DNA of 41,053 bases from Planctomycetota bacterium (GTDB lineage Bacteria > Planctomycetota > Planctomycetia > Planctomycetales > Planctomycetaceae). The DNA lies in contig VGZH01000052.1 of assembly GCA_016872645.1 (NCBI GenBank), positions 1 to 41,053 of the forward strand, written 5' to 3'. Positions 17,238 through 36,407 of this stretch are shown piece after piece. Made by a program: the position numbers and the translations under genes. The first letter of the stretch is position 1. Each line of letters starts with the position of its first letter. Below the pieces are notes generated by a model. The model ran no database searches. It was not told the DNA's origin and was given only the letters and a program-made list of their open reading frames with translations.

Positions 17238-18320
17238 ATGACAGCGATTCAAAAACCAAGGGGTGACTGCGTCGTGAAGGACTCAAGCACAGGCGACTCA
17301 GCCGGTTGGCGGCGACTTCGATCGTGGGCCAAATGGCCTTTTGCGGCAGCATTGATGACGTTCGTACTGTGGCGACATTGGGACAAGCTGCGACAGATCA
17401 CTGAACAAGCGTTGCATTGGCCTAGCATTGTGATGGCTCTCGGACTGTGCGGCGGTGCAATCGTGCTGACTTTTTTTCGCTGGTACTTTTTGGTCAAGGC
17501 ATTGGGGTTCGCGTTCACGATCCGCGATGCGCTGCGATTGGGATTCATCGGCTACCTCTTCAACTTCGTGGCACCTGGCTCGGTCGGAGGTGATGTGGTC
17601 AAAGCCACGCTGCTCGCGAAAGAACAATGCAACCGACGCACAACAGCCGTTGCGACCGTTCTACTGGACCGAATCCTGGGGATGCTCTCGCTGTTTTTGA
17701 TCGGTGCTTGGGCCGCCTGGCCACAGTGGACCGAGATTCGTGAACGAGCCGAACTCAAAGCACTTGTCGGTTTGCTGATCCTCGGCAGCGCGGCCGGGTT
17801 GGTCGGATTCGCACTGATGCTGATTCCAGCAGTGACTCGCTCGCCAGCCTGGCAGCACCTCGCTCGGCTACCGGTCGTCGGGCACATGGTCGCCGAGTTG
17901 GTCGAGGGGGTGCGGCTGTATCAATCACAGCGGCGAGTCCTGTTCATCGCGCTGGGAATCAGCTTCGTGGGACACTTTGGCACCATCTCGTCGTTCTATT
18001 TTAGTGCGAAAGCCATCAGCGGTGCGTCGTTGCTGCCGAGCTATGTTCAGCACTTGTTCTTCATCCCGGCAGCCGAGTTGGCCGGAATCGTTCCGATCAC
18101 TCCCGGTGGCGTCGGGCTTTTGGAAGAGGCTGTCAACGCGCTCTACAAACTCAACGGAGCCGCCGACGGTACCGGTATTCTGACGTGCCTGGCCTATCGA
18201 GCGGTCACTTTGGCCATCGCGCTGATCGGCGCGGCATGCTACTTGACGGCGCGCCGCGAAATAAACGAGGCACTGCACACAGAGCCCCACCAAGAGAATG
18301 CCGCGAACACCTCAACGTAG
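17238..18320 (+). CDS. Flippase-like membrane protein (LPG synthase TM / YbhN family)
   Basis: This 360-aa polytopic membrane protein has the hallmarks of the UPF0104/lysylphosphatidylglycerol synthase transmembrane family. These are a GYLFNFVAPGSVGGDVVKA segment in the first half, a following VLLDRILGMLSLFLIG helix, and a TPGGVGLLEEAVNALY segment in the second half. Around seven to eight helices are visible. Members are stand-alone membrane proteins linked to lipid or glycolipid translocation; the catalytic lysyl-transferase domain of MprF is absent. The ATG at 17238 is used; a GTG about 13 codons later is an alternative. It ends 142 nt before the SpeD gene in the same direction, so it could be linked to the polyamine cluster, but the gap allows a separate promoter. 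Confidence 0.9.
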   Translation: MTAIQKPRGDCVVKDSSTGDSAGWRRLRSWAKWPFAAALMTFVLWRHWDKLRQITEQALHWPSIVMALGLCGGAIVLTFFRWYFLVKALGFAFTIRDALRLGFIGYLFNFVAPGSVGGDVVKATLLAKEQCNRRTTAVATVLLDRILGMLSLFLIGAWAAWPQWTEIRERAELKALVGLLILGSAAGLVGFALMLIPAVTRSPAWQHLARLPVVGHMVAELVEGVRLYQSQRRVLFIALGISFVGHFGTISSFYFSAKAISGASLLPSYVQHLFFIPAAELAGIVPITPGGVGLLEEAVNALYKLNGAADGTGILTCLAYRAVTLAIALIGAACYLTARREINEALHTEPHQENAANTST

Positions 18321-18462
18321 GCCTCAAATTCGATTGCCGCACTGGCCTCGAGAGTCCAGTTCTCTTCCTTGTAGAGACAGCGAATGATTTAATGATTAGG
18401 TCAAATCTTGTCCGCTTCAGGGACGACTACAAGAAAACTTGCGAAGCGACGAACTACGCTGC

Positions 18463-18897
18463 ATGATGACGACGTCGATCGAACAAGGAGTGGTCAAGAC
18501 CGACCGTGCCCCCGCCGGCGCGGGTCGCGAGTGGATCGTCGACGCGAGCGGTTGCTCGTGCGAGCGGTTGCAATCGCTGCAATCTGTGCGAGCCGTTTGC
18601 GAGCGTGCCGTTCGCGAACTGGAATTGCAGGTCGTCGGTCAACCGCTGTGGCGACAGTTTCCAGAACCGGGAGGTGTCACCGGACTCTATTTGCTCAGCG
18701 AGTCGCATCTCGCTTGCCACACCTGGCCGGAATCAGGATTGGCGACGTTCAACCTGTTCTCATGCCGACGCCGCGGCGATTGGCCGTGGAAAGATCGACT
18801 GCGCGAAATGCTCGGCGCTGAGTCGGTTTCGGTACGCATTGCAGAACGTGGTGCTGCCGTTTCGTCCTTCATTCGGCCGGAAGGAGCGACGGCATGA
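18463..18897 (+). CDS. speD: S-adenosylmethionine decarboxylase proenzyme (class 1b)
   Basis: This 144-aa protein matches the short bacterial SpeD proenzyme. Its core is LYLLSESHLACHTWPESGLA. Self-cleavage is expected between Glu80 and Ser81, so that Ser81 becomes the pyruvoyl cofactor. The catalytic Cys is at 101 in NLFSC. The product, decarboxylated AdoMet, is the aminopropyl donor for spermidine-type synthesis. The ribosome site before the ATG at 18463 is weak; the next codon is also ATG. The gene overlaps the following DUF4178 gene by 4 nt (ATGA), implying translational coupling, and a spermidine-synthase-like gene follows 2.2 kb later in the same direction. The family call is firm; whether it feeds free spermidine or a membrane-linked product is open. 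Confidence 0.9.
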   Translation: MMTTSIEQGVVKTDRAPAGAGREWIVDASGCSCERLQSLQSVRAVCERAVRELELQVVGQPLWRQFPEPGGVTGLYLLSESHLACHTWPESGLATFNLFSCRRRGDWPWKDRLREMLGAESVSVRIAERGAAVSSFIRPEGATA

Positions 18898-20489
18898 AGA
18901 AGCGAATCGTCGCCTGTCCCGCGTGTGCCGCGCCGGTCGAGTTCAAACTCAGCACCTCGCTGGTCACGGTGTGTGACTTCTGCCGTTCCGTCGTTGCCCG
19001 GGCCGACAAGAAAGTCGAAGACCACGGCAAGGTCGCGGACCTGGTCGAAACGAACTCGCCGATTCATCGAGGTCTGTCGGGAAAATACAACAAAAAACGA
19101 TTCGATGTCGTCGGCCGCGTGCAGTATCAGCATCCGGCAGGGGGCGTCTGGAACGAGTGGTACTTGCGATTCCCGCAGGACAAAGTCGGCTGGTTGGCGG
19201 AGGCTCAGGGAAAGTTCTACTTGATGTTCGAACGACGCTTCGCCAGCCAAGCCGAATTTTCCAGCTTTGAATCGCTGGAAGTGGGACATCGCTTCCAATC
19301 GTCGGTCGAGGGGAAGAGTTCGCCATCTTCCGGTGTAACCGGTTATGTCGTTGCGGAGAAAGGGACCGCGACGGCTGCCGCGGCGGACGGCGAAATTCCC
19401 TGGGCCTTTCGCCAACACGCCGAGCATCGGTTCGCCGATCTGCATGGTGATGGTCACGAATTCGGGACCCTCGAATACAGCGGCGATCGTCCGCGCGCGT
19501 TCTTTGGTCACGAAGTTTCGCTGGCCGATCTGAATCTTGAATCGGACGGCTGGGCGTCAGCGCTACCGGCTGGTCCGAACACCCCCGCCTTGCAACTCAA
19601 CTGTCCGAAATGTGGCGGCCCGCTGACGCTGTTCGTTCCCGATCAATCGCAGCGGATCACCTGTGTCAGTTGCCATTCGTTGCTCGACTGCGGACAGGGC
19701 AAGCTGGAATACCTCAAGACGCTCAGCGGCCGAGGAATCGACAAACCGCTCATTCCACTCGGCTCGGTCGGCAAGCTCTTCGACACCGAATACACGGTCA
19801 TCGGATTCATGGGACGCTTCGCCGTTTGGGAAGGCAAACATTTTCCGTGGACTGAGTACCTGCTCTACAACCCGGCGAAAGGATTTCGTTGGCTGGTTTG
19901 CAATCAAGGGCATTGGAGCTTTGTGGAGGCCGTCCCGCTCTCGAAGGTCGCTCGGCGAGGCGACCGGGATGACGTCGTTTTCAACGGCCAAAAGTTCAAG
20001 CTCTACGACCGCGGGACGGCCCATGTGAATTTTGTCGTCGGCGAGTTCTATTGGCGTGTGACGACCGAAGAAAAAGTTCACACTGCGGATTACATCGCTC
20101 CGCCGCTGATGCTGTCGTTTGAAACAACACGATCGGACAAAGGGTCGGAAGAAAACGTTTCCCTGGGGAAATACCTCTCCGTCGAAGAGGTCGAAGCTGC
20201 GTTCAAACGGTCGGACCTGCCTCGTCCATTCAGTGTGGGCACAATTCAACCGCAGCCAAGGCGGTCGGACGTTTGGGGCTTGTGGGTCTGCCTGGCGTCA
20301 TTGTTGGCGGTGCTGGATTGCGTGTTCGTCTCTGGGGCCGTGAAGACACCGGTCAGTCAGGGACATTTCATGACCGCACAGTTCATGATTGCCGCGTTCC
20401 CGTTGATGCTGCTGTTTGTGCGGCATACGTTCGAGGTCAATCGGTGGCAAAACAGCGACTACAGCCCGTACGCACAAAGCGAAGAATGA
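18894..20489 (+). CDS. Double DUF4178 protein with zinc ribbons and C-terminal TM helices
   Basis: This 531-aa protein has two halves of similar design. Each begins with a zinc-ribbon-like Cys set: Cys8/Cys11 with Cys27/Cys30, and Cys237/Cys240 with a CVSC motif about 20 residues later. Each continues into a DUF4178 domain, recognised by segments such as KRFDVVGRVQYQ and WNEWYLRF in the first and TEYTVIGFMGRF and WTEYLLYN in the second. The last 80 residues hold two membrane helices (WGLWVCLASLLAVLDCVFVSG and FMIAAFPLMLLFV). The domain's chemistry is unknown; I recall it being encoded next to DUF350 and spermidine-synthase-like genes. Here it overlaps speD by 4 nt and precedes a DUF350 gene, so it is probably an inner-membrane scaffold or adaptor of that system. 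Role is inferred. Confidence 0.88.
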   Translation: MKKRIVACPACAAPVEFKLSTSLVTVCDFCRSVVARADKKVEDHGKVADLVETNSPIHRGLSGKYNKKRFDVVGRVQYQHPAGGVWNEWYLRFPQDKVGWLAEAQGKFYLMFERRFASQAEFSSFESLEVGHRFQSSVEGKSSPSSGVTGYVVAEKGTATAAAADGEIPWAFRQHAEHRFADLHGDGHEFGTLEYSGDRPRAFFGHEVSLADLNLESDGWASALPAGPNTPALQLNCPKCGGPLTLFVPDQSQRITCVSCHSLLDCGQGKLEYLKTLSGRGIDKPLIPLGSVGKLFDTEYTVIGFMGRFAVWEGKHFPWTEYLLYNPAKGFRWLVCNQGHWSFVEAVPLSKVARRGDRDDVVFNGQKFKLYDRGTAHVNFVVGEFYWRVTTEEKVHTADYIAPPLMLSFETTRSDKGSEENVSLGKYLSVEEVEAAFKRSDLPRPFSVGTIQPQPRRSDVWGLWVCLASLLAVLDCVFVSGAVKTPVSQGHFMTAQFMIAAFPLMLLFVRHTFEVNRWQNSDYSPYAQSEE

Positions 20490-20507
20490 CGAGAGGGAGA
20501 GTGGTTC

Positions 20508-20708
20508 ATGTGGAAGAACATTTCGAGCGTCGGTTGGTGTTATTTGACCTACGGGTTGCTGACGTGCGGATACTTCTGCGCCGCTGCGATCGGCGGTTGG
20601 CGGTATCCTGATCTTCTCAGCGCCCTCGATTCACCCGGTTATTCAAGTAATTCAAGCGGCTCATCGTACGGCCGCAGTTCTGGCGGCTCTTGGGGAGGAG
20701 GTAAGTAG
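20508..20708 (+). CDS. Small Ser/Gly-rich membrane protein
   Basis: This 66-aa protein has one hydrophobic helix (YLTYGLLTCGYFCAAAIGGW) and a short low-complexity tail dominated by Ser, Gly and Tyr ending in GGSWGGGK. It starts 18 nt after the DUF4178 gene behind GAGAGGGAGAG, and its stop overlaps or abuts the next start. Tight packing, a good ribosome site and a credible membrane segment argue that it is real. I do not recognise a family. By position it may be a small subunit of the membrane system formed with the DUF4178 and DUF350 proteins. Confidence 0.7.
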   Translation: MWKNISSVGWCYLTYGLLTCGYFCAAAIGGWRYPDLLSALDSPGYSSNSSGSSYGRSSGGSWGGGK

Positions 20709-20710
20709 TG

Positions 20711-21007
20711 ATGAGTATCGAATTCATTTCGGGCTGGATGCTGCCGGCCACGCTGGCCTTTGCGGAGGAGACTGCCATGTTGGACGGAGCCTCGCAAGGG
20801 AAGTTGTGGATGCACTTGCTCGCGGCAATCCTTTTCTCGTTGGTTGGCGTCGCCGTGTTGGCGCTTTGCTTCAAACTGATGAACAAGTTCTCGCCATTCT
20901 CGCTCAAGAAAGAGATTGAAGAAGACCAAAACGTCGCACTGGCGGTCATCATGGGAGCCGTCATCATCGGCATGTCGATCATCATTGCGGCGGCGATTCA
21001 GGGATAG
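20711..21007 (+). CDS. DUF350 (UPF0719) membrane protein
   Basis: This 98-aa protein has three hydrophobic helices. The second (LLAAILFSLVGVAVLALCFKL) and third (VALAVIMGAVIIGMSIIIAAAI) flank a charged loop with FSLKKEIEEDQN, the characteristic pattern of one DUF350 unit. The ATG at 20711 follows a GGAGGAGG ribosome site; a GTG one codon earlier is an alternative. DUF350 proteins, such as E. coli YjfL, are of unknown function. From memory, they occur beside DUF4178/DUF2491-type proteins and polyamine-type enzymes. The present neighbourhood fits that pattern. Local role (membrane partner of the aminopropyl transferase) is inferred. Confidence 0.85.
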   Translation: MSIEFISGWMLPATLAFAEETAMLDGASQGKLWMHLLAAILFSLVGVAVLALCFKLMNKFSPFSLKKEIEEDQNVALAVIMGAVIIGMSIIIAAAIQG

Positions 21008-21057
21008 CTGACCAGTGAGCGGCTCGGAGCTCACGAAGTGAAACGATTGAGTGACGC

Positions 21058-22686
21058 ATGAAGTCCGCAGACTCGATGAATCGCGCACCGTTGTTCCTGT
21101 TGTATCTCAACGTGCTGATCATTGCGTCGTGCGGACTGGTCTACGAACTGCTGGCCGGCACGCTCGCGAGCTACCTGCTGGGAGACTCGGTCACCCAGTT
21201 TTCGTTGGTGATCGGTGTCTACCTGTCCGCGTTGGGAGCCGGCGCGTGGATCTCACGGTTCGTCGATCAGCGTCTGGCTCGTTGCTTCATCGAGGTCGAA
21301 CTCGCGGTTGCGTTGGTCGGTGGACTGTCGGCTCCAGTGTTGTTCTTGGCGTTCTCATCGGTCGGCGCGTTTCGAGTCGTGCTGTACGGCATTGTATTTG
21401 CCATCGGAGCCCTCGTCGGCCTCGAATTACCGCTGCTGATGCGGCTACTTAAAGAGCATCTCGATTTTGAAGATCTTGTCTCGCGCGTGCTGGCGTTCGA
21501 CTACCTCGGAGCGTTATTCGCGTCGCTGCTGTTCCCGATGTTCTGTGTGCCGCGGCTCGGCCTGGTGCGAACGTCGCTGCTGTGTGGATTGCTGAACGCG
21601 GCGGTCGGCCTCTGGGGGACGTACTTGCTGCGGCCGCTGCTATCGTCGCGCGGGCTGAGCGGCCTGAGAGGCCGAGCCTGTCTGGTGATCGGTCTGCTGA
21701 TCGTGGGCATCATCAAAGCCGACAGTCTGACAACTCTGGCGGAAGAACGGGTACTGGGTGAGCCGGTCGTGCATGCCGAATCGACGCCGTATCAGCGGAT
21801 CGTGCTGACTCAAAACGCGCGTGGCTTTCAGCTTCATCTCAACGGGCATCTGCAATTCAACTCTGTGGACGAACATCGCTACCACGAAGCACTCGTGCAC
21901 CCGGCGTTGTCGTCGGTGAAGTCGCCGCGTCGAGTGCTGGTGCTCGGTGGCGGCGATGGATTGGCGGTGCGCGAGATCCTGCGATACCCGTCGGTCGAAT
22001 CGATCACGCTGGTCGATCTCGATCCCGGCATGACGTCGCTGGCGGATCGCTTTCCGCCGCTGGCCGAACTGAGCCGCTCATCGCTGAAGGAACGCCGCGT
22101 GACCATCATCAACGAGGATGCATTCCTGTGGGTGGGCCGGGTGGCACGCCCTGAGTCATCCAAGGGCGTGGAGACTGACCACTCCCACGCCCTTCCCGAA
22201 GGCTCAGGGCGTGCCACCCAACGTGATGATGCAACGTTGTTCGACTCCGCGATCATCGACTTCCCTGATCCCGGCACGTTCTCGGTCGGAAAGTTGTACT
22301 CGACGCGGTTCTATCGAATGCTGCGCGAGCGTCTGACGGGCGACGCCGTCATCAGTGTGCAATGCACGTCTCCGTTGGTTGCACCGCAGTCGTATTGGTG
22401 CATCGTGAAAACGCTCGAAGCGGTGGGCTTCCGCGTTCGGCCGTATCACGCCGCCGTGCCGTCGTTCGGTGAATGGGGTTTCGTCTTGGCCTCGCCCAGG
22501 CCACTGCCAGAGACATTGAGCCTGTCATCTGAACTCCGCGGGCCGTCGCGCTTTTTGACCGACAAGATTTTGAACAGCCTGTTCGACCTGCCACTTGACC
22601 TTGCTCGTGTCGAGGCAGAAGTGAATCGGCTCAACAACCAGGTGCTGGTGCATTACTACGACCAAGAATGGGGATCGCTGAAGTGA
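21058..22686 (+). CDS. Membrane-anchored spermidine-synthase-like aminopropyltransferase
   Basis: The protein is 542 aa. The N-terminal ~220 residues carry about six or seven membrane helices, starting [20 protein letters not shown]. The C-terminal ~320 residues are a spermidine synthase domain. The AdoMet-binding loop is [16 protein letters not shown], an acidic VDLDPGM follows, and the SpeE-type motif [19 protein letters not shown] appears later. A stretch at about residues 359-390, just before that motif, is encoded by a large palindrome and looks inserted in frame. The fusion of a membrane domain to a SpeE domain suggests chemistry at the membrane, perhaps aminopropylation of a lipid or of a membrane-delivered amine, using decarboxylated AdoMet from the SpeD above. 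True substrate unknown. It overlaps the next gene by 4 nt. Confidence 0.88.
22139..22219. repeat. In-frame palindromic element inside the synthase gene
   Basis: A perfect 17-bp outer inverted repeat (22139-22155 with 22203-22219, arm GGGTGGCACGCCCTGAG) encloses a 10-bp inner one (22162-22171 with 22185-22194, arm AAGGGCGTGG). Together they can form a long cruciform or RNA hairpin. The DNA is translated in frame as a polar stretch ([13 protein letters not shown] and onward) between two core motifs of the aminopropyltransferase domain. This is the signature of a REP/MITE-like or RPE-like insertion. No second copy is apparent in this window. Confidence 0.8.
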
Positions 22687-24335
22687 CGCTCACTCGCCGC
22701 GAACTGATCGCCATCCTGCTGGGGTCTCCGGCGCTGTTGACGACGGGATGTTCGACAGTGCCGCATCTGCCGCCGGCGGGAGAATTGCTCGGCCAGTCGC
22801 TGGAAATCGGCCATCGGCTGCGCGACGGTTTTCGATGGCCATCGCCAGATACAGATCAGTGGCAGGACGTTGGCGTGGTCATCGTTGGGGGAGGTGTCGC
22901 CGGACTGTCGGCCGCGTGGCGATTGAAACAAAACGGCTGCGAGGATTTTGTGATCCTCGAATTGGAATCGCAGCCGGGCGGGACATCGCGATCGGGGCGC
23001 TGCGAGCTGACTCCGTATCCATGGGGTGCCCATTATCTGCCAGTGCCGTTGCCTCACAACCGCGATCTGATTCGGCTGCTGGAAGAAATGGGATGCGTTG
23101 AATCGCTGAACCCCGACGGTTCGCCAGTCATCGCCGAACAGTTCTTGTGTCGCGATCCCGACGAGCGGGTGTTCGTGAACGGCCAATGGATCGAGGGCTT
23201 GTATCCCTCCCTTGGAGCTTCGAACGATGACTTCGCACAACTCGCGGCGTTTCGCCAGGAGATCGACCGTTGGACGGCGTGGCGTGACACGGCCGGTCGC
23301 CGAGCCTTCTCAATCCCCATTCGCCACTCGACGGACGACGCCGAGGTACTGGAACTCGACAAGCTGTCGATGGCCGAATGGTTGCGGCAGCACGAATGGA
23401 CTTCGCCACGATTGCACTGGCTGGTCGACTACAGTTGCCGCGACGACTACGGCTTGACGGCCGAACAAACCAGCGCGTGGGCCGGCGTGCTGTACTTCGC
23501 CGCTCGACTGAAGGAGCCGGGGGCCGACCATCAACCGCTGATGACCTGGCCGCATGGGAATGGCCGAATCATCGAATACTTGGCTTCGCAAGCTGACACG
23601 CGATTGAAGCCTGGTATCGCCGTGACTCGAATCAATCCAAGCCATGAGAACCCGAACGCGACTCTCGAAGTCCTCGCTTTCGACACGGCGTCTGAGCAGC
23701 CGATTGGATTCCATGCAAAGTCGGTCATCTTCGCCGCTCCGCAGTTTCTCGCACCCCGTTTGATCGACGGATTTGCGGAAAGAACTGGCCGCAGTGCCGA
23801 TCCGTTTGAATACGGCTCATGGCTGGTCGCGAACGTGCATCTCCGCCACCGCCCACGTGAATCGAGCTTTCCGCTGAGTTGGGACAATGTGATCCACGAT
23901 AGCCGCTCGCTGGGTTATGTCGTCGCGACGCATCAATCCGGCGACGATCACGGGCCAACGGTGCTGACGTGGTATCACCCACTCTGCGACGACGATGTCA
24001 AAGCCGCGAGACAGCAATTACTCAAAGCGAAGTGGTCGGACTTGGCCGACGTGGTGCTGACCGATCTCGAACACCCGCACCCGGAGATTCGCGAGCTGGT
24101 CACTCGCCTGGATGTCTTTCGCTGGGGACACGCGATGATTCGCCCTCGTCCCGGCTTCATCACCAGTCGCCACCGTCGCGACGCTGCACAGCCCGACGGT
24201 CGAATCCATTTTGCGAACACGGACCTCAGCGGCATCGCGTTGTTCGAAGAAGCCTTCGACCACGGCCTGCGTGCGGCCGATGAAGTGCTGGTCGCTCAGA
24301 ATTCTCGCCCCTCGTCCCTTATCCCTTGCCGCTGA
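22683..24335 (+). CDS. Exported FAD-dependent amine-oxidase-like lipoprotein
   Basis: The protein is 550 aa from a GTG at 22683, which gives a 4-nt overlap with the synthase stop (GTGA) and a GGGGA ribosome site; an ATG at 22668 is an alternative. The N-terminus [18 protein letters not shown] looks like a Tat signal with twin Arg, followed by a lipobox TTGC (Cys23). The dinucleotide-binding fold is [16 protein letters not shown] with a downstream acidic residue (LELESQPGG), typical of flavin amine oxidases and phytoene-dehydrogenase-like proteins. The C-terminal FAD segment is around the [20 protein letters not shown] region. A folded flavoprotein exported by Tat and tethered by lipid fits an oxidase acting on the polyamine or aminopropyl product of the preceding enzyme; that link is inference. 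Substrate could instead be an unrelated amine or lipid. Confidence 0.85.
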
Positions 24336-24342
24336 CCCAAGC

Positions 24343-25425
24343 ATGCCCTACCCGTGGCTATTTTCTGCGAAGACCGACTTGCTGACGTTCGGCGGCAGCG
24401 CGGTCCTGGCATTGTTGCTGGTGGTTCTGGGTTGGCCGCTGGGCTGGTTGGAAAAGGAAACGCCTGATTGGTTGTGGGTGGTCTCGGTGCTGCTGATCGA
24501 CGTCGCTCACGTCTACGCGACCGGATTCCGTGTGTACTTCGATCGGGCGGAACTGCGACGTCGAGCCTGGCTGTACGCGCTGGTGCCGCTGCTGGCGTTC
24601 GGGATCGGAGCGGCGTTGTATTCTGAAGGTGCGAGTCTGTTCTGGAGGACATTGGCGTACGTCGCCGTCTTTCATTTTGTCCGCCAGCAATACGGCTGGG
24701 TCGCACTGTACCAAGCCAAAGCCGGTGAACACGACAAACTTGATCGAGCCATCGACTGGGCGGCGATTTATCTGGCGACGATTTATCCGCTGGTCTTTTG
24801 GCATTCGCACTCGCGCCGCTTCTCGTGGTTCGTACGGTCCGATTTTTTCGAGGTGCCGGTGCTCGCAGAACGAGTCTTGGCTCCAATCTATTGGACGGTG
24901 CTGGGCCTGTACGCGGGACGCTCGTTGTTTCGAGCAATTCGGCTACGGCAGTCCAATCCGGGCAAAGACCTGGTAGTGGCGACCACGGCGTTGTGCTGGT
25001 ACGTCGGCATTGTCGGCCTCAACTCCGACTACGCCTTCACGGTGACGAACGTGATCACGCACGGGGTGCCGTACATGGTTTTGGTCGCGTGGTTTCAATC
25101 GGCAGGCCGTGCCGAGTCCTCGGCGTCTCCGGTCAATCGACAGCCCGGCTGGCGCTGGTGGCAATTCCTCGGCTTGCTGTGGCTGCTGGCTTACGCTGAG
25201 GAGTTGCTCTGGGACTGCGGCGTCTGGCACGATCGGTCGTGGCTGTTTGGCCCCGCTTGGAACGTTGGCGGATGGGATCAGGTACTCGTGCCGTTGCTGG
25301 CGGTTCCGCAGATCACGCATTACGTCCTGGATGGATTCATCTGGCGGCGACGCTCGAACCAGGATGTCGGCCAATTTGTGGCATCGAGCGGAATGTCGAT
25401 GACGGTGCTGAAACCTCCATCTTGA
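24343..25425 (+). CDS. Polytopic membrane protein with conserved-looking His residues
   Basis: The protein is 360 aa from the ATG at 24343, only 7 nt after the flavoprotein gene; upstream in-frame starts lie inside that gene. About eight membrane helices are visible. Several His-containing motifs lie at or near helix ends: DVAHVYATG, FHFVRQQYGW, FWHSHSRR, THGVPYM and QITHYVLDGFIWR. Multiple membrane His residues recall metal-dependent membrane oxygenases or desaturases, but no classical HxxxH/HxxHH box set is present, so I do not assign a family. It is the last gene of the tight 18463-25425 run and so probably functions with the amine oxidase and synthase. Confidence 0.8.
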   Translation: MPYPWLFSAKTDLLTFGGSAVLALLLVVLGWPLGWLEKETPDWLWVVSVLLIDVAHVYATGFRVYFDRAELRRRAWLYALVPLLAFGIGAALYSEGASLFWRTLAYVAVFHFVRQQYGWVALYQAKAGEHDKLDRAIDWAAIYLATIYPLVFWHSHSRRFSWFVRSDFFEVPVLAERVLAPIYWTVLGLYAGRSLFRAIRLRQSNPGKDLVVATTALCWYVGIVGLNSDYAFTVTNVITHGVPYMVLVAWFQSAGRAESSASPVNRQPGWRWWQFLGLLWLLAYAEELLWDCGVWHDRSWLFGPAWNVGGWDQVLVPLLAVPQITHYVLDGFIWRRRSNQDVGQFVASSGMSMTVLKPPS

Positions 25426-25462
25426 CCCTCTTCAGCAAATCTGGGACAAGCCGCTCCCCTCC

Positions 25463-25484
25463 GACCAGTCAAGGACGACTGGTC
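25463..25484. other. Hairpin-forming inverted repeat after the cluster
   Basis: A perfect 8-bp inverted repeat GACCAGTC/GACTGGTC with a 6-nt loop lies 37 nt after the end of the membrane protein gene and 39 nt before the next start. It lacks a T-tract, so it may be an mRNA-stabilising or attenuating hairpin rather than a strong terminator. It marks the likely 3' edge of the polyamine-like cluster. Confidence 0.4.
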
Positions 25485-25523
25485 ACTGCCCTCTCATGTT
25501 CCGTCTGTGCCAGGGATGGCGAT

Positions 25524-27431
25524 ATGCGTGGCCTCTTGAATCTCCCGCGTTACTGCGGACCGAATGCCTGCTGGGTAGCGTTGTGCCTCGGCTGGCTGAG
25601 CCTCTCTGGCTGCGCCAACATCATCGAGTTGCGTGCCATCGAGCGATTCAGCGACGCGCTGAAAAGCGAAGACTTTGAGAAGCTCAAGACTGCGGCCTCG
25701 ACAGACTTTGAACAACGGGCGTTGCGAAAAGATGTGGCACTGGACGACCTCAAATTGCTGAGGCTGCCCACCGGTGACCTGGAAATCGACAAAGTCGAAG
25801 AAGTCTCGCCGACGGTGAAGCGTGTCACCGTGATGGTTGGCGAGTCGAAACAAAAGCTGAAATATCAATTGAAGCTCGACCCGCAGACCAAGAAGTGGGT
25901 CGTGGATGACATTTACCTCAAGCAGAAAAAGGACGGCGTCACGGCCACGAAGTCCGTCACCGAGCAAATGGACTTGCTGCTTTCGGTGCGTGAATTCCTT
26001 GACGCCTGGAAGGACGGCGACCGCGAAGACGTACTCCGCACGGTGACTCCCGAATTCGCGGAGACACTGCGACCGCTGCCACCTGCGTACCTGAACCGGC
26101 TGACGCAACAAGTGATCGGCAAACAAAAGACTGGCAAGCGACTGCAACCGCGAGCACAACTCGATGAAAACACGGCTCACGTCCGCCTGCCGATCGCAGT
26201 CGGAGAACTGTGGCTGACGGCGAAACGTGCTGACGGTCACTGGCTCATCGACGACGTCGAAGTCAATTCTCGCGAGGAGAAGGAAGCCATTCCGTCCACG
26301 CGGCAACTGGCGCAAGTCACCCACACGGCAACAGCGTTCCTCAATGCGTATCAAGCGGGTGACAAGTCACGTCTGCAATCGCTTTGTACGACAAAGTTTT
26401 TCAGTGGCAGCCTCGCTCCGGCGAATCTGTCGCAAGTGACATTGCCCAGTGGTGATGTTCCAGCCGACAACGTGCAGATTCATGTCGCCTGGCAAGGCTT
26501 CTCCACAACCGATCCGCAGGAGGCTCAGCTTCGCGGAAAACATTCAGACTTTGTGGTCGAAGGGCCGAGTGAAGTGCTCAAGTTGAGCCTGCTCAGGGAA
26601 GAGGCCAGCGACGCTGATCACAAAGTGAAATACTTGATCGAAGAGGCGACCCTGTACGAACTCGACAGCCGGCAAGAAAAGCGGCTGTCCGCGCTATTCA
26701 CCGCGCACGCGCTGGTGCAGATTTACGCTGAAGCGCTGGTTTCCCGTGATCTCGAAGCCATTCGAGCCAGTTCCTCGTTGGACTTCGACCGTCGGGTGTG
26801 GCGTTCACTGCATGCTGGCCTGGTGCATGAGATGCCGCTCAACGAAATCGAAGATGCGACACCCAGAATTCAATCGACCGTCTTCTCTGGGCCTCTGACG
26901 GAGGTCACAGTCACTCAAGGCACGCGGGCGTTGACCTACATACTGCAAGACCGCCAGGGCGAACTCTTGGTCGATGACGTGCTGTTACCGACAATCGGCC
27001 GACCCAGTTCATTGAAAGCCACATTGGAACTAATGTTGCCGGTGCTCGATTTCGCTGCTGGCCTGCGTTTGGGGCAACTGGATGCGCTGCAACGACATTC
27101 CTCCAGCGATTTCAATCGGCTGGTGTGGCACCAAACACCCAAGATTCCCCGCATCGATCACGACATCGTGCAGCACCTGCACGCTCCACTCGTCTCAATC
27201 GAACAGAGCGACGACCGTGCCCTGTTGGTTTTGGGTGATGACAAATTCGGTGCTCAAGTCACATTGATCCGCGAGTCCGGCCGACTAGTCATCGATGACG
27301 TCTTGCTGATCACCGGAACGATGCCGCGTGACCACGTTGAACTCAAACGCCACTTGCGATTGCACATCGCCTCCTTCGGCGTCGGCAAACTGCCACGAGA
27401 GGAAGTCAACCCGACGAGCGGCCAGCGTTAA
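25524..27431 (+). CDS. Lipoprotein with five tandem NTF2-like repeats
   Basis: The protein is 635 aa from the ATG at 25524, which gives a lipoprotein signal with lipobox LSLSGC (Cys30). The frame is open upstream to 25239 without coding character. The mature protein seems built from five diverged units of about 105-125 residues. Each starts with a helical segment of the type FLDAWKDGDREDV or FLNAYQAGDKSRL and ends with a beta segment of the type WVVDDIYL, WLIDDVEV, LLVDDVLL or LVIDDVLL. The design (helix, then curved sheet closing in a [W/L]xxDDV strand) resembles small NTF2/SnoaL-like domains. No catalytic residues are recognised; a binding or scaffold role at the membrane is plausible. It follows the cluster after 98 nt but may be separate. 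Confidence 0.85.
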   Translation: MRGLLNLPRYCGPNACWVALCLGWLSLSGCANIIELRAIERFSDALKSEDFEKLKTAASTDFEQRALRKDVALDDLKLLRLPTGDLEIDKVEEVSPTVKRVTVMVGESKQKLKYQLKLDPQTKKWVVDDIYLKQKKDGVTATKSVTEQMDLLLSVREFLDAWKDGDREDVLRTVTPEFAETLRPLPPAYLNRLTQQVIGKQKTGKRLQPRAQLDENTAHVRLPIAVGELWLTAKRADGHWLIDDVEVNSREEKEAIPSTRQLAQVTHTATAFLNAYQAGDKSRLQSLCTTKFFSGSLAPANLSQVTLPSGDVPADNVQIHVAWQGFSTTDPQEAQLRGKHSDFVVEGPSEVLKLSLLREEASDADHKVKYLIEEATLYELDSRQEKRLSALFTAHALVQIYAEALVSRDLEAIRASSSLDFDRRVWRSLHAGLVHEMPLNEIEDATPRIQSTVFSGPLTEVTVTQGTRALTYILQDRQGELLVDDVLLPTIGRPSSLKATLELMLPVLDFAAGLRLGQLDALQRHSSSDFNRLVWHQTPKIPRIDHDIVQHLHAPLVSIEQSDDRALLVLGDDKFGAQVTLIRESGRLVIDDVLLITGTMPRDHVELKRHLRLHIASFGVGKLPREEVNPTSGQR

Positions 27432-27488
27432 TTCGTCGCCATTCGACTTTCTCGTCCGACGTCATCCGCACGATCAAGGACTCCATCA

Positions 27489-28406
27489 ATGGTCGAAGTA
27501 CCACCGCTCAAAACCGGATTTCGCCGAGGACTCTGCCTGGCATTTTATCTGTCCAGCCTCAGCCTCTGCGCAGGCGAATTGGCGGCAGGCGAAGGCGACG
27601 CGGTACGACTGACGTATCGCTTTCAGCCCAGCGAGTCGCTGCACCTTGAATACAAACAGAACATGACGATGGACATTCGCCTTCCGAACCTCAGACGGAA
27701 GTTGGTCAGCCAAACGCTCGCTAACAAGCACCTGCGAGTCATCTCCGTGGATGAAAACGGCAACGCACTCGTCGAGCCGATCATCGATCGCACGCGCATG
27801 ACCAGCCAGCAAGACGATGACCCCGAATCAATCTTTGACTCGGCCGATGGACCGGACAGTTGCCCGGCCGAATATCGGCCGCTGTTGGCGACTGTGGGCA
27901 AGCCGCTAGTCCGAATCAAATTCGCTCCCAATGGAAAGCTCATCGTGGCGGACAGCGTGACCGGCGACGGCAAGATTTCTAAAGACTTCAAGGATGACCC
28001 CACGCTAAATTTTCTGATCGTTTTCCCGGATCATCCGGTGCAAGTCGGCGACACTTGGAAAGACGAATTTGAGGCAATTGCGCAACTGGACAGGACGCTC
28101 AAACAAGGAGTCAAACTCCGCCGCGAATATCGGCTGCAGAAACTGGAGGGCGCATTGGCCGAGATCGAATTGCAAACCTCCTGCTTGACTCCACTACGCG
28201 ATCCGATGGTGGAAATGCAAATCACCGCGCGGTTGCTCAGTGGAAAGATCGTCTTCGATCACCAGCGAGGACAAATCGTCACACGCGAGATGCGTGTCGA
28301 AAGCCAGGTTCTCAACGGCATCGGACCCAACACGCTGGTCAACACCGTGATGACGCAGTCCGAGCGCCTCGTCCCGAATCCGAAACTCGCGAATCGAGAG
28401 AAGTAA
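27489..28406 (+). CDS. Secreted protein of unknown function (DUF6263-like)
   Basis: This 305-aa protein has a signal peptide (LCLAFYLSSLSLCAGELAAG) and a mature region dominated by beta strands. It begins with RLTYRFQPSESLHLEYKQNM and later has PDHPVQVGDTWKDEF and LQTSCLTPLRDPMVEMQ. The overall pattern resembles a planctomycete family of secreted beta proteins (DUF6263-like, from memory). An AAGGA ribosome site lies 8 nt before the ATG. It starts 57 nt after the repeat lipoprotein and is followed by the DAC gene after 19 nt, so the three may be co-transcribed. No catalytic motif is visible; function unknown. Confidence 0.8.
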   Translation: MVEVPPLKTGFRRGLCLAFYLSSLSLCAGELAAGEGDAVRLTYRFQPSESLHLEYKQNMTMDIRLPNLRRKLVSQTLANKHLRVISVDENGNALVEPIIDRTRMTSQQDDDPESIFDSADGPDSCPAEYRPLLATVGKPLVRIKFAPNGKLIVADSVTGDGKISKDFKDDPTLNFLIVFPDHPVQVGDTWKDEFEAIAQLDRTLKQGVKLRREYRLQKLEGALAEIELQTSCLTPLRDPMVEMQITARLLSGKIVFDHQRGQIVTREMRVESQVLNGIGPNTLVNTVMTQSERLVPNPKLANREK

Positions 28407-34825: not shown

Positions 34826-34964
34826 AAAATGCTCCTCGAAATCGCCGAGACGCTCGGAAATCCGTTTGTACTCCGCAGGTTCGGCAGCGGGAGCATAGCA
34901 ATCGGGACGACGAGTCGCAAAAACACACGAAGTTATCGCAAATGTTTTGAACCGGAGTTTTGCC

Positions 34965-36407
34965 ATGAAACGAAGTCTGTCGGCCAGAGGCGTCATTCAA
35001 CTGGCGTGTTTGTGCTTTGCCGTCTCGTCCCAGGCAACTGCCAGCGAACTGCGGGCCGGAGCGTTCGCGATGGATGTGACTCCACTGAAGTTTCCGATCT
35101 CAATGAACGGCAACCTGCAGGATGCGCTCGCCAAAAAGGCGGCCGATCCGCTGCACGCCCGCTGTTTGGTACTCGACGACGGACAGACGCGAGTGGCATT
35201 CGTCGTCGTCGATAACTGCCTGATCCGCCGCGAACTGATGGACGACGCCAAACAGCGAGCCAGCAAATTGACCGGCATCCCGATCGAACGGATGCTGATT
35301 TCCTCCACACACGCACATTCGTGTCCGACGGTCACCGGAGTTTTCCAAAGCGAACCGATCGTCGAGTATGTCGAGTTCCTGACCGAACGGATCGCCGCCG
35401 GGATCAAGCAGGCCAATGACAACCTCGCGCCGGCTCGGATTGCGTGGGGAGTCGGGCGCGACGAGACACAGGTGTTTAATCGCCGCTGGCTGCTGAAAGA
35501 GCCTTCGAATGACTCCAACCCGTTCGGCCGAACCGACAAGGTTCAAATGAATCCAGGGTTCAACAATCCCAAGGTCTCGAAGTCGGCCGGTCCGGTCGAT
35601 CCGGAAGTCAGCTTCTTGAGCGTGCAATCTCCCGAGGGCCAGCCGCGCGCGTTCCTGGCAAATTATTCGCTGCATTATGTCGGCGGCACTGGCGGCGATT
35701 TGTCCGCGGACTACTTCGGAGCCTTCGCCGAACGGATCGGACAATTGCTGAAGGCTGATAACTCAGCTAAGTCCTCGTTCGTCGGCATCATGTCGAATGG
35801 GACGAGCGGCGACGTCAACAACATCAACTACGGCCTGACAACCCCGCCAAAATTTCAACCGTTTGAAAAACTCAAGCTGGTCGCCAACAGCGTCGCGATG
35901 GCGGCCTTCGCGGCACATGAAAAATCTGAGCACCGCTCGAACGTGTCGATCGCAATGCAGGAGACCGAGATTAATCTAAAAGTCCGCAAGCCTTCGCCTG
36001 ACGACATCGCCGCCGCGAAGGAACGGCTCTCGATGGCAGGCGACTTTCCCTACAAATCGATGCCCGAGATCTACGCGCGAGAGACGCTCAAATTGGCCGA
36101 GTACCCCGACACCGTGAAACTGAAATTGCAGGCCATTCGCATCGGCGATCTGGGGATCGTCGCCATCCCGGCCGAAGTCTTCACCGAAATCGGTCTCGAA
36201 CTCAAACGCCGCAGCCCGCTCAGGCCGACCTTCACGATCACGATGGCAAATGGCTGGAACGGCTATTTGCCGACTCCGCAGCAACACGAACTGGCCGGCT
36301 ACGAGACGTGGCGAGCACGTTCCAGCTATCTGGAAGTCGGTGCGTCTTCGAAGATCGTCGAGACGCTGCTGAAGCTGCTGAAAGAGGTCGCGGTCGAAAA
36401 CAAGTGA
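34965..36407 (+). CDS. Neutral/alkaline ceramidase-like secreted protein
   Basis: The protein is 480 aa from the ATG at 34965 (GGAG upstream), with a signal peptide ending near QATASE. It matches the N-terminal catalytic part of the neutral/alkaline ceramidase family. The segment LRAGAFAMDVTP starts the domain, the metal-site region is STHAHSCPTVTG, and the later MSNGTSGDVNNINYG corresponds to the family's GDV motif. It lacks the C-terminal Ig-like domain of canonical ceramidases. Planctomycete genomes carry many such proteins, and their substrates need not be ceramide; amide or ester hydrolysis outside the cytoplasm is likely. The Zn ligand set is only partly traceable by eye. Confidence 0.85.
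   Translation: MKRSLSARGVIQLACLCFAVSSQATASELRAGAFAMDVTPLKFPISMNGNLQDALAKKAADPLHARCLVLDDGQTRVAFVVVDNCLIRRELMDDAKQRASKLTGIPIERMLISSTHAHSCPTVTGVFQSEPIVEYVEFLTERIAAGIKQANDNLAPARIAWGVGRDETQVFNRRWLLKEPSNDSNPFGRTDKVQMNPGFNNPKVSKSAGPVDPEVSFLSVQSPEGQPRAFLANYSLHYVGGTGGDLSADYFGAFAERIGQLLKADNSAKSSFVGIMSNGTSGDVNNINYGLTTPPKFQPFEKLKLVANSVAMAAFAAHEKSEHRSNVSIAMQETEINLKVRKPSPDDIAAAKERLSMAGDFPYKSMPEIYARETLKLAEYPDTVKLKLQAIRIGDLGIVAIPAEVFTEIGLELKRRSPLRPTFTITMANGWNGYLPTPQQHELAGYETWRARSSYLEVGASSKIVETLLKLLKEVAVENK

What the first reader, a model, noticed from the sequence alone, without database searches (positions are those of the whole stretch)
18463..25425. Compact SpeD, DUF4178, DUF350, membrane SpeE, exported flavoprotein cluster
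Seven same-strand genes with overlaps or gaps of at most about 50 nt combine a decarboxylated-AdoMet maker, a membrane-fused aminopropyltransferase, an exported FAD amine-oxidase-like lipoprotein and four membrane or zinc-ribbon proteins of unknown function. DUF4178, DUF350 and spermidine-synthase-like genes are known to me as neighbours elsewhere, but this set adds SpeD, a lipoprotein oxidase and a His-rich membrane protein. It suggests envelope-linked aminopropyl chemistry (lipid or exported amine) rather than routine spermidine synthesis.
Basis: partly seen in the sequence, partly recalled or inferred. Interest (0 to 1): 0.75.

Follow-up and report, generated by a model that had tools for sequence, protein, structure and literature searches.

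The report
Membrane aminopropyl-transfer and oxidation gene cluster
Seven adjacent genes in a planctomycete encode what looks like a conserved envelope pathway that attaches a small amine-bearing group to an unknown molecule and then oxidises an amine; it extends a published but unexplained type of gene cluster with two co-inherited partners, one of them from an unnamed protein family.

Summary
In detail: SpeD, a double-DUF4178 zinc-ribbon protein, a small membrane protein, a short DUF350 protein, a 7-helix membrane protein fused to SpeE, a Tat-exported FAD lipoprotein and a 10-helix orphan ("gene 7") lie on one strand with gaps of at most 50 nt. The core (SpeD, DUF350, membrane SpeE, DUF4178) is a published kind (Ravi 2024, passages read; Li 2019, recalled). 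No paper in my searches describes the FAD lipoprotein and gene 7 as partners. Both track membrane SpeE in Planctomycetota: FAD is in 19 of 199 sampled genomes, all 19 with membrane SpeE (24 of 199 overall). Of 28 genomes whose fetched gene 7 locus lacked SpeE, 28 have SpeE and 28 FAD elsewhere or nearby. The full order recurs in 28 of 80 loci, 7 titled Acidobacteriota. Charge distribution (44 of 44 sequences) predicts the SpeE domain outside the cytoplasm, on the FAD lipoprotein's side. Best reading: envelope aminopropyl transfer coupled to amine oxidation. Substrate, topology and gene 7 chemistry are unproven; routine spermidine synthesis is not excluded, as the cluster holds the genome's only detected SpeD and only canonical SpeE. 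New variant of a known kind.

The parts
18463..18897 (+). speD-like, class 1b AdoMet decarboxylase, divergent cluster-type subfamily
   Evidence: PF02675 87.1 bits; TIGR03330 73.0 bits, just under its cut-off of 75.65. S81, H86 and C101 (equivalents of T. maritima S63, H68, C83) invariant in 23 of 23 rows. Only PF02675 match in the genome.
18894..20489 (+). DUF4178 protein: two zinc ribbons, two DUF4178 domains, two hydrophobic C-terminal segments
   Evidence: PF13785 123.9 bits; two matches, 19071-19520 and 19758-20180; CxxC pairs and hydrophobic segments read by eye from the translation.
20508..20708 (+). small protein, one hydrophobic segment and Ser/Gly tail, 66 aa
   Evidence: No family. 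Found in the same place in the six complete same-genus loci and, by tblastn, in 13 of the 80 loci.
20708..21007 (+). short DUF350 (YjfL-type) membrane protein
   Evidence: PF03994 49.1 bits, profile positions 4-66 of 133.
21058..22686 (+). 7-TM domain fused to an aminopropyltransferase (SpeE) domain
   Evidence: NF002956 625.5 bits. AF2 pLDDT 84.2, pTM 0.68, seven long helices within 10-219. VIA Z 35.4, rmsd 2.2 A over 278 residues to 1uir. Charge distribution N-in/C-out in 33 of 33.
22668..24335 (+). Tat-exported FAD-dependent amine-oxidoreductase-like lipoprotein
   Evidence: PF01593 67.9 bits. R10, R11 and C28 invariant in 36 of 36. Among NCBIfam families the one matched by most members is PigB, 35 of 36, far under its cut-off.
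24343..25425 (+). gene 7: orphan 10-TM membrane protein with four invariant intramembrane histidines (H56, H111, H240, H326)
   Evidence: No Pfam family matched by more than 2 of 58 members at E up to 1. AF2 pLDDT 87.9, pTM 0.86. His invariant in 58 of 58; N-in/C-in charge distribution in 58 of 58.

Best explanation
The cluster is one conserved membrane module for aminopropyl transfer followed by oxidation. SpeD decarboxylates AdoMet in the cytoplasm (inferred from kept catalytic residues). The SpeE domain carried on the 7-TM protein transfers the aminopropyl group to an amine substrate at the membrane (fold and catalytic residues shown; substrate unknown). The Tat-exported FAD lipoprotein oxidises an amine at the outer face of the cytoplasmic membrane (export signal shown by sequence, reaction inferred from family). 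Gene 7 is its near-constant membrane partner (co-inheritance shown) and probably holds a metal or heme site made by four buried histidines, acting as electron outlet to the quinone pool or as an oxygenase (inferred). The 7-TM charge pattern puts the SpeE domain on the same outer side as the FAD protein (predicted, not shown). DUF4178, DUF350 and the 66-aa protein are probably scaffold or regulatory parts (inferred).
For: Order SpeD-DUF4178-DUF350-SpeE-FAD-gene 7 on one strand in 28 of 80 loci, 6 of the 28 from the window's genus and 7 titled Acidobacteriota. Phylum sample of 199: FAD protein (E up to 1e-60) in 19, all 19 with membrane SpeE (24 of 199 have it); by genus 16 of 16 against 21 of 157, hypergeometric 7e-18, kinship above genus not corrected. 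Gene 7 (E up to 1e-40) in 16 of 199, 15 of them with FAD. 28 genomes with gene 7 and no SpeE in the fetched locus: 28 have SpeE, 28 have FAD. Partners are unlinked in, e.g., G205 and G232. SpeD was found in 16 of 16 FAD-bearing relatives against 11 of 43 others. In L127, L128 and L132, where no cluster-type SpeD was found upstream, a SpeD match of 31-34% identity lies 0.1-1.2 kb after gene 7, so AdoMetDC activity seems required. RR and Cys invariant 36 of 36. SpeE Z 35.4 to 1uir; compared residues invariant 33 of 33. Topology: 33 of 33 cluster SpeEs and 11 of 11 further membrane SpeEs fit N-in/C-out. G035 keeps a separate SpeE-like protein without the membrane domain and a classical SpeD beside the cluster.
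Against: No activity, substrate or topology experiment exists here. dcAdoMet outside the cytoplasm would need export that I know of nobody having shown. In this genome no other canonical SpeE or SpeD was found, so ordinary spermidine synthesis may depend on the cluster. G019 has the cluster without gene 7; G124, G133, G166 and G186 have FAD without gene 7 and G075 has gene 7 without FAD; five genomes of the sample have full-length membrane SpeE without FAD, and among the relatives G034 has a membrane SpeE (38% identity) and SpeD without FAD, gene 7 or DUF4178. More distant FAD relatives need not be lipoproteins: the ORF in L149 has twin arginines but no lipobox Cys by eye. The gene 7 model has no clear fold match (best Z 7.0 to rhodopsins, within noise), and no coordinates were at hand to measure the His site.
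Confidence: 0.5

Rival explanations
1. Routine spermidine (or related polyamine) synthesis by a membrane-tethered SpeE, with the FAD protein as an exported polyamine oxidase that limits or recycles it.
For: Only SpeD found and only canonical SpeE found in the genome; SpeA present (785 bits); all compared catalytic and amine-anchoring residues of SpeE are invariant; nearest fold is a triamine/agmatine aminopropyltransferase; NCBIfam names the family polyamine aminopropyltransferase. PMC11841054 (passage read) calls M. tuberculosis Rv2601 a spermidine synthase; that Rv2601 is of the same membrane family is recalled, not tested.
Against: Membrane fusion with predicted outer SpeE domain; G035 carries the cluster beside a separate SpeE-like protein and classical SpeD; gene 7 has no role in this scheme; Li et al. 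2019 (recalled abstract, not held) report that such fusions do not complement a spermidine synthase deletion.
Confidence: 0.25
2. An envelope-stress module like the PspA operons of Ravi et al. 2024, in which aminopropylation or polyamine level is a signal and the oxidase and gene 7 are accessory.
For: DUF4178, DUF350 and 7TM-SpeE are shared with those operons. The same phylum has the PspA type: L145 and L146 (PspA by Pfam) and L144 (PspA by eye, K+ channel by Pfam).
Against: No PspA match among the ten proteins scanned from 17238 to 28403. The three genomes of L144-L146 (G074, G115, G121) have no FAD or gene 7 match, so the two sets look like alternatives; G101, with two membrane SpeEs, was not resolved.
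Confidence: 0.15
3. A chance or operon-convenience grouping of unrelated genes.
For: Genes flanking the cluster (upstream flippase-like gene, downstream lipoprotein) are also syntenic in the nearest relatives, so local synteny alone means little.
Against: Conserved order in 28 of 80 loci across two phyla and co-inheritance when unlinked (28 of 28 and 28 of 28).
Confidence: 0.03

Closest known systems
AdoMetDC / membrane-fused spermidine-synthase-like / DUF350 clusters (Li, Kurihara, Kim, Liang, Michael 2019, Biochem J, doi 10.1042/BCJ20190561; not held, abstract recalled)
   Same: SpeD, membrane-fused SpeE and DUF350 together; hypothesis that the fusion aminopropylates something other than putrescine.
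   Different: The FAD lipoprotein and gene 7 are not in the abstract as I recall it; the full text could not be read.
PspA-CesT/Tir operon with 7TM-SpeE, DUF350 and DUF4178 (Ravi et al. 2024, PMC11237479; passages read)
   Same: 7TM-SpeE, DUF350, DUF4178; membrane context.
   Different: Here no PspA match was found (CesT/Tir was not sensitively tested); DUF350 is a short form; DUF4178 is a double domain with zinc ribbons; SpeD, FAD lipoprotein and gene 7 are present instead.
ATP-grasp/DUF350 polyamine operons, variants with AdoMetDC and polyamine oxidase (same paper, third group)
   Same: Combine AdoMetDC, an amine oxidase and DUF350.
   Different: No match to an ATP-grasp ligase, band-7, DUF4247 or DUF2617 among the cluster proteins; 7TM-SpeE and gene 7 are there. 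Whether the paper's polyamine oxidase is the same FAD family was not tested.
PigB (NF053556), prodigiosin pathway FAD oxidoreductase
   Same: NCBIfam family matched by most members of the FAD protein alignment, 35 of 36.
   Different: 55 bits against a cut-off of 850; the function does not transfer.

Membership tests
7TM-SpeE / DUF350 / AdoMetDC clusters (Li 2019 type) | SpeE domain fused to an N-terminal membrane domain | tested here: met
   NF002956 625.5 bits; 7 helices then SpeE fold.
7TM-SpeE / DUF350 / AdoMetDC clusters (Li 2019 type) | AdoMetDC and DUF350 genes in the cluster | tested here: met
   PF02675 87.1 bits, PF03994 49.1 bits.
7TM-SpeE / DUF350 / AdoMetDC clusters (Li 2019 type) | fusion does not make spermidine | not testable with these tools
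   Needs complementation and polyamine analysis.
PspA-CesT/Tir 7TM-SpeE operon (Ravi 2024 group 2) | PspA (of the PspA/CesT-Tir dyad) in the operon | tested here: not met
   No PspA match among ten proteins from 17238 to 28403; the same scan finds PspA in L145 and L146 of the phylum. CesT/Tir was not sensitively tested.
PspA-CesT/Tir 7TM-SpeE operon (Ravi 2024 group 2) | DUF4178 and 7TM-SpeE | tested here: met
PspA-CesT/Tir 7TM-SpeE operon (Ravi 2024 group 2) | 8TM DUF350 protein | tested here: not met
   99 aa, profile positions 4-66 of 133, against 286 aa with two DUF350 stretches in L145.
Polyamine aminopropyltransferase (SpeE) | fold and catalytic residues | tested here: met
   Z 35.4, rmsd 2.2 A, 278 residues to 1uir; Q266, Y275, D300, D320, D354, D401, D404, Q435 invariant in 33 of 33; their roles in known SpeE are recalled.
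Polyamine aminopropyltransferase (SpeE) | soluble cytosolic enzyme | tested here: not met
   Seven TM helices; predicted C-out.
Class 1b AdoMet decarboxylase | pyruvoyl Ser, processing His, catalytic Cys | tested here: met
   Invariant in 23 of 23; positions S63, H68, C83 named in PMC10407285 (passage).
Class 1b AdoMet decarboxylase | substrate AdoMet rather than ornithine or arginine | tested here: inconclusive
   TIGR03330 73.0 bits against 75.65; a classical-type SpeD after gene 7 in loci without the cluster type argues for AdoMet.
Flavin amine oxidoreductase (PF01593) | Pfam gathering score | tested here: met
   67.9 bits against 19.8.
MAO/PAO-type amine oxidase | conserved active-site Lys (recalled) | tested here: inconclusive
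   No alignment column has Lys in more than 15 of 36 rows, but the position was not mapped on a structure.
PigB equivalog | NCBIfam cut-off 850 bits | tested here: not met
   55.1 bits.
Any Pfam family (gene 7) | match over the gathering score | tested here: not met
   58 members scanned; no family matched by more than 2, best E 0.046.
Rhodopsin-like 7TM fold (gene 7) | clear structural match | tested here: inconclusive
   Best Z 7.0, rmsd 4.6 over 168 residues, below the level that means anything for helical bundles.

The most novel reading that the evidence does not exclude
An extracytoplasmic aminopropyltransferase: the 7-TM domain passes decarboxylated AdoMet across the membrane to its own SpeE domain on the outer side, which aminopropylates an outer-leaflet or periplasmic amine; that product is then oxidised by the Tat-exported FAD lipoprotein with gene 7, a four-histidine membrane redox protein of a new family. 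AdoMet-derived chemistry outside the cytoplasm would be a new kind.
Probability: 0.3. Interest if true: 0.88.

Novelty: new variant of a known kind. Interest (0 to 1): 0.62.

Why it matters
It gives an open question, namely what membrane-fused SpeE proteins aminopropylate, two new handles: an exported FAD enzyme that may act on the product or a close relative, and an orphan membrane protein that is nearly always co-inherited. It also makes a sharp, cheap prediction (SpeE domain outside the cytoplasm) that would change how AdoMet-derived chemistry in envelopes is seen. Planctomycetota and Acidobacteriota envelopes are poorly understood, and the product could be a new lipid or surface amine.

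Tried and rejected
Gene 7 fold: Foldseek against PDB gave no match with E up to 0.001 and VIA only rhodopsin-like bundles at Z up to 7.0, which the tool's own note calls common for helical models; no fold claim is made. Sequence profile of gene 7 against PDB: none at E up to 1. The fold of the 7-TM part of SpeE was not tested: the search list was filled by the SpeE domain. Flippase link: the LPG_synthase_TM gene upstream (17238-18320) looked attractive for lipid export, but it is present in 4 of 7 same-genus loci that hold upstream sequence (L022, L023, L024, L051; absent in L027, L029, L030), so it is left out of the cluster. Other SpeE-like genes of the genome (C25, C19) were checked as alternative aminopropyltransferases and score far under the SpeE cut-offs. 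Neighbours of lone gene 7 and lone FAD genes in the eight loci listed showed no common extra partner by eye. Literature, judged from listed titles and abstract starts: DUF4178 occurs in one held paper, Ravi 2024; DUF350 with polyamine in six, of which only Ravi 2024 was opened; a search for a periplasmic or extracellular aminopropyltransferase listed 7, none relevant; (3, 10 and 3 papers) and the capped lists (20 of 22 listed; 20 of 32; 12 of 418) showed no report of this cluster beyond Ravi 2024. Passages in PMC11107197, PMC10407285 and PMC7857480 cite Li 2019 in their reference lists without telling its content. Most subscription papers are not held.

Rows dropped before counts: gene 7 rows L114, L126, L129 and L139, FAD row L078 and SpeD row L127 had a stop inside the matched stretch. 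Alignments use chosen rows: A2 57 of 76 plus the window, A3 35 of the 50 long FAD rows plus the window, A4 32 of the 42 long SpeE rows plus the window, A5 22 of 32 SpeD rows plus the window. Of 500 gene 7 relatives found, only the best 80 were kept. Of 33 loci without SpeE, 28 were sent; the five left out (L067, L086, L095, L100, L134) begin inside or just before the FAD gene. In the phylum searches the first look passed only up to 7 (FAD, SpeE) or 10 (gene 7) candidates per genome to scoring.
Full report
WHAT IS THERE. The window is contig C52 of a 5.76-Mb genome; the nearest matches of its gene 7 are planctomycete MAGs. Between 18463 and 25425 seven genes lie on the + strand with overlaps of 4 and 19 nt and gaps of at most 50 nt. 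They are a class 1b SpeD, a DUF4178 protein (two zinc ribbons, two DUF4178 domains, hydrophobic C-terminus), a 66-aa membrane protein, a short DUF350 protein, a membrane-fused SpeE, an FAD amine-oxidoreductase-like lipoprotein and gene 7, a membrane protein with no family.

BOUNDARIES. In the same genus all seven genes stand in order in 6 of 6 fetched loci whose contig covers the whole cluster (L022, L023, L024, L027, L029, L030). The gene before (LPG_synthase_TM, 17238-18320) is found in 4 of 7 loci with upstream sequence, and the two genes after in L022-L024 only. The conserved unit is therefore the seven genes.

SPREAD. A search with gene 7 found 500 relatives in species-representative genomes; the best 80 were kept. 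In 28 of these 80 loci SpeD, DUF4178, DUF350, SpeE, FAD and gene 7 follow in that order on one strand; 6 of the 28 are from the window's genus and 7 bear Acidobacteriota titles. FAD is on 54 of the 80 loci, SpeE on 47, DUF350 on 42, DUF4178 on 38, SpeD on 33 and the 66-aa protein on 13 (many loci are cut by contig ends). On a SpeE tree of 33 rows the nine Acidobacteriota rows lie in one half that also holds eight planctomycetes (midpoint root, weak support for the exact split), which would fit transfer of the module but does not prove it.

CO-INHERITANCE WITHOUT LINKAGE. In 59 relatives the FAD protein and DUF4178 occur in the same 16 genomes; gene 7 (E below 1e-100) occurs in 15 of these 16, missing in G019; SpeD is in 16 of the 16 and in 11 of the other 43. 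Ten of the 16 are one genus, so the genus count is fairer: 7 of 44 genera for both FAD and DUF4178. In 199 genomes drawn from the phylum FAD (E up to 1e-60) is in 19, gene 7 (E up to 1e-40) in 16 and membrane SpeE in 24 (23 over the cut-off, plus G219 split in two pieces; three further partial hits, G064, G075 and G141, not counted). All 19 FAD genomes have membrane SpeE; 15 of 16 gene 7 genomes have FAD; by genus the hypergeometric values are 7e-18 (FAD with SpeE) and 8e-14 (gene 7 with FAD) (kinship above genus not corrected). Against the pattern: G124, G133, G166 and G186 have FAD but no gene 7, G075 has gene 7 without FAD, and five genomes (G074, G115, G121, G122, G227) have full-length membrane SpeE without FAD. 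Of these five, G115 and G121 carry the PspA type of operon by Pfam and G074 by its ORFs plus a K+ channel match; G122 and G227 carry DUF350 beside SpeE, with DUF4178 (G122) or SpeD (G227), and lack FAD. Among the relatives G034 has a membrane SpeE (38% identity) and a SpeD on one contig without FAD, gene 7 or DUF4178. In G205 and G232 the three genes stand on separate contigs, with at least 7 kb on both sides of SpeE and of gene 7 free of the other two. In 28 genomes with gene 7 and no SpeE in the fetched locus, 28 have SpeE and 28 have FAD; SpeE and FAD are neighbours in 11 of the 28 by the listed coordinates. Sub-pairs also occur: FAD with gene 7 (L112, L116, G101) and SpeD with gene 7 (G138, L162). 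This is the strongest evidence that they share a function.

THE ENZYMES. SpeD: the Ser, His and Cys needed for self-processing and decarboxylation are invariant in 23 of 23 rows (positions from PMC10407285, passage read). It is a divergent subfamily, just under the NCBIfam cut-off, so its substrate is inferred. In L122, L127, L128, L132 and L134 a SpeD match of 30-34% identity lies 0.1-1.2 kb downstream of gene 7; in L127, L128 and L132 the upstream side is held and shows no other SpeD, in L122 and L134 it is cut off. The three aligned (L122, L128, L134) are of the classical type. This suggests that AdoMetDC activity is what is needed. SpeE: the model matches T. thermophilus triamine/agmatine aminopropyltransferase (Z 35.4, rmsd 2.2 A, 278 residues, 30% identity). 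The residues compared are invariant in 33 of 33 (roles recalled). FAD protein: twin arginine and lipobox Cys invariant in 36 of 36, though the distant relative in L149 lacks the Cys by eye; PigB is the NCBIfam family that most members match, 35 of 36, at low score. No lysine column typical of MAO/PAO enzymes was seen (at most 15 of 36), but the position was not mapped on a structure.

TOPOLOGY. The SpeE model has seven long helices (10-41, 44-66, 73-100, 102-131, 137-167, 169-190, 197-219). With an odd number of helices the SpeE domain is on the other side from the N-terminus. Mean K+R is 8.1 on the sides that would be inside in an N-in model and 3.5 on the outside ones, and inside exceeds outside in 33 of 33 cluster SpeEs; in 11 further membrane SpeEs it is 9.6 against 3.3, 11 of 11. 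This predicts an outer SpeE domain, the side to which the FAD lipoprotein is exported. It is a prediction only: inside and outside stretches differ somewhat in length, no coordinates were seen, and I know of no dcAdoMet exporter. Gene 7: ten helices, N-in/C-in in 58 of 58 (K+R 19.3 against 4.8), with H56 (helix 2), H111 (helix 4), H240 (helix 8) and H326 (helix 10) invariant in 58 of 58, all at mid-depth of helices that run in the same direction. A buried metal or heme site is likely but was not measured.

WHAT IT PROBABLY DOES. An envelope pathway that transfers an aminopropyl group and then oxidises an amine, with gene 7 as redox partner or oxygenase. Rival: membrane-tethered spermidine synthesis. 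In this genome the cluster holds the only SpeD found and the only canonical SpeE; the other two SpeE-like genes score far under the cut-offs, and arginine decarboxylase is present, so this rival stands. Against it, G035 has the cluster together with a separate 357-aa SpeE-like protein (250.3 bits, just under a cut-off of 260) and a classical SpeD (146.4 bits, over its cut-off), and gene 7 and the FAD lipoprotein would be superfluous.

COMPARISON WITH PRINT. Ravi et al. 2024 (PMC11237479; passages read) describe 7TM-SpeE, DUF350 and DUF4178 with PspA and CesT/Tir, and another operon type with AdoMetDC and a polyamine oxidase beside an ATP-grasp ligase. Li et al. 2019 is cited there; I know its content only from memory of the abstract (not held). 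So the core and the idea of non-polyamine aminopropylation are known. The FAD lipoprotein and gene 7 as co-inherited partners, and the outer placement of the SpeE domain, were not found in the listings of the searches made (some lists capped); most subscription papers are not held.

VERDICT. Real, conserved and functionally coherent; a new variant of a known kind, with a bold and testable topological prediction.

Noticed in passing
17238-18320: LPG_synthase_TM / flippase-like gene directly upstream on the same strand; syntenic in 4 of 7 same-genus loci with upstream sequence. A cationic-lipid flippase beside this cluster would fit but is not conserved.
   Followed up: partly
L144, L145, L146: The same phylum carries the PspA-type operon (PspA, DUF4178, long DUF350, membrane SpeE); in L144 and L146 an ion channel with RCK-like domain follows SpeE. 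It appears to be an alternative to the FAD/gene 7 type.
   Followed up: partly
L122:5589-5984, L127:11122-11547, L128:12245-12586, L132:12249-12590, L134:2876-3232: SpeD of classical type (aligned for L122, L128, L134) placed 0.1-1.2 kb after gene 7 where the divergent cluster SpeD is not seen upstream or the upstream side is cut: an apparent displacement inside the same cluster.
   Followed up: partly
L049 (G034): A membrane SpeE at 38% identity with a SpeD and a lipoprotein nearby but no DUF4178, FAD or gene 7: possibly a third cluster type.
   Followed up: no
L036, L037, L038, L039, L040: Distant gene 7 relatives at 22-27% identity, with no other cluster gene on the locus: gene 7 belongs to a wider unnamed membrane family.
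   Followed up: no
25524-27431: Predicted lipoprotein of about 635 aa after the cluster, apparently of several repeated segments (by eye); only weak Pfam matches.
   Followed up: no
34947-36407: Secreted protein that looks like a neutral ceramidase-type enzyme (by eye); a similar ORF lies beside lone gene 7 in L076. Probably coincidence, as I recall such genes being common in planctomycetes.
   Followed up: no
L164, L165 (G000:C25, G000:C19): Two large proteins with weak SpeE-like domains in the same genome.
   Followed up: partly
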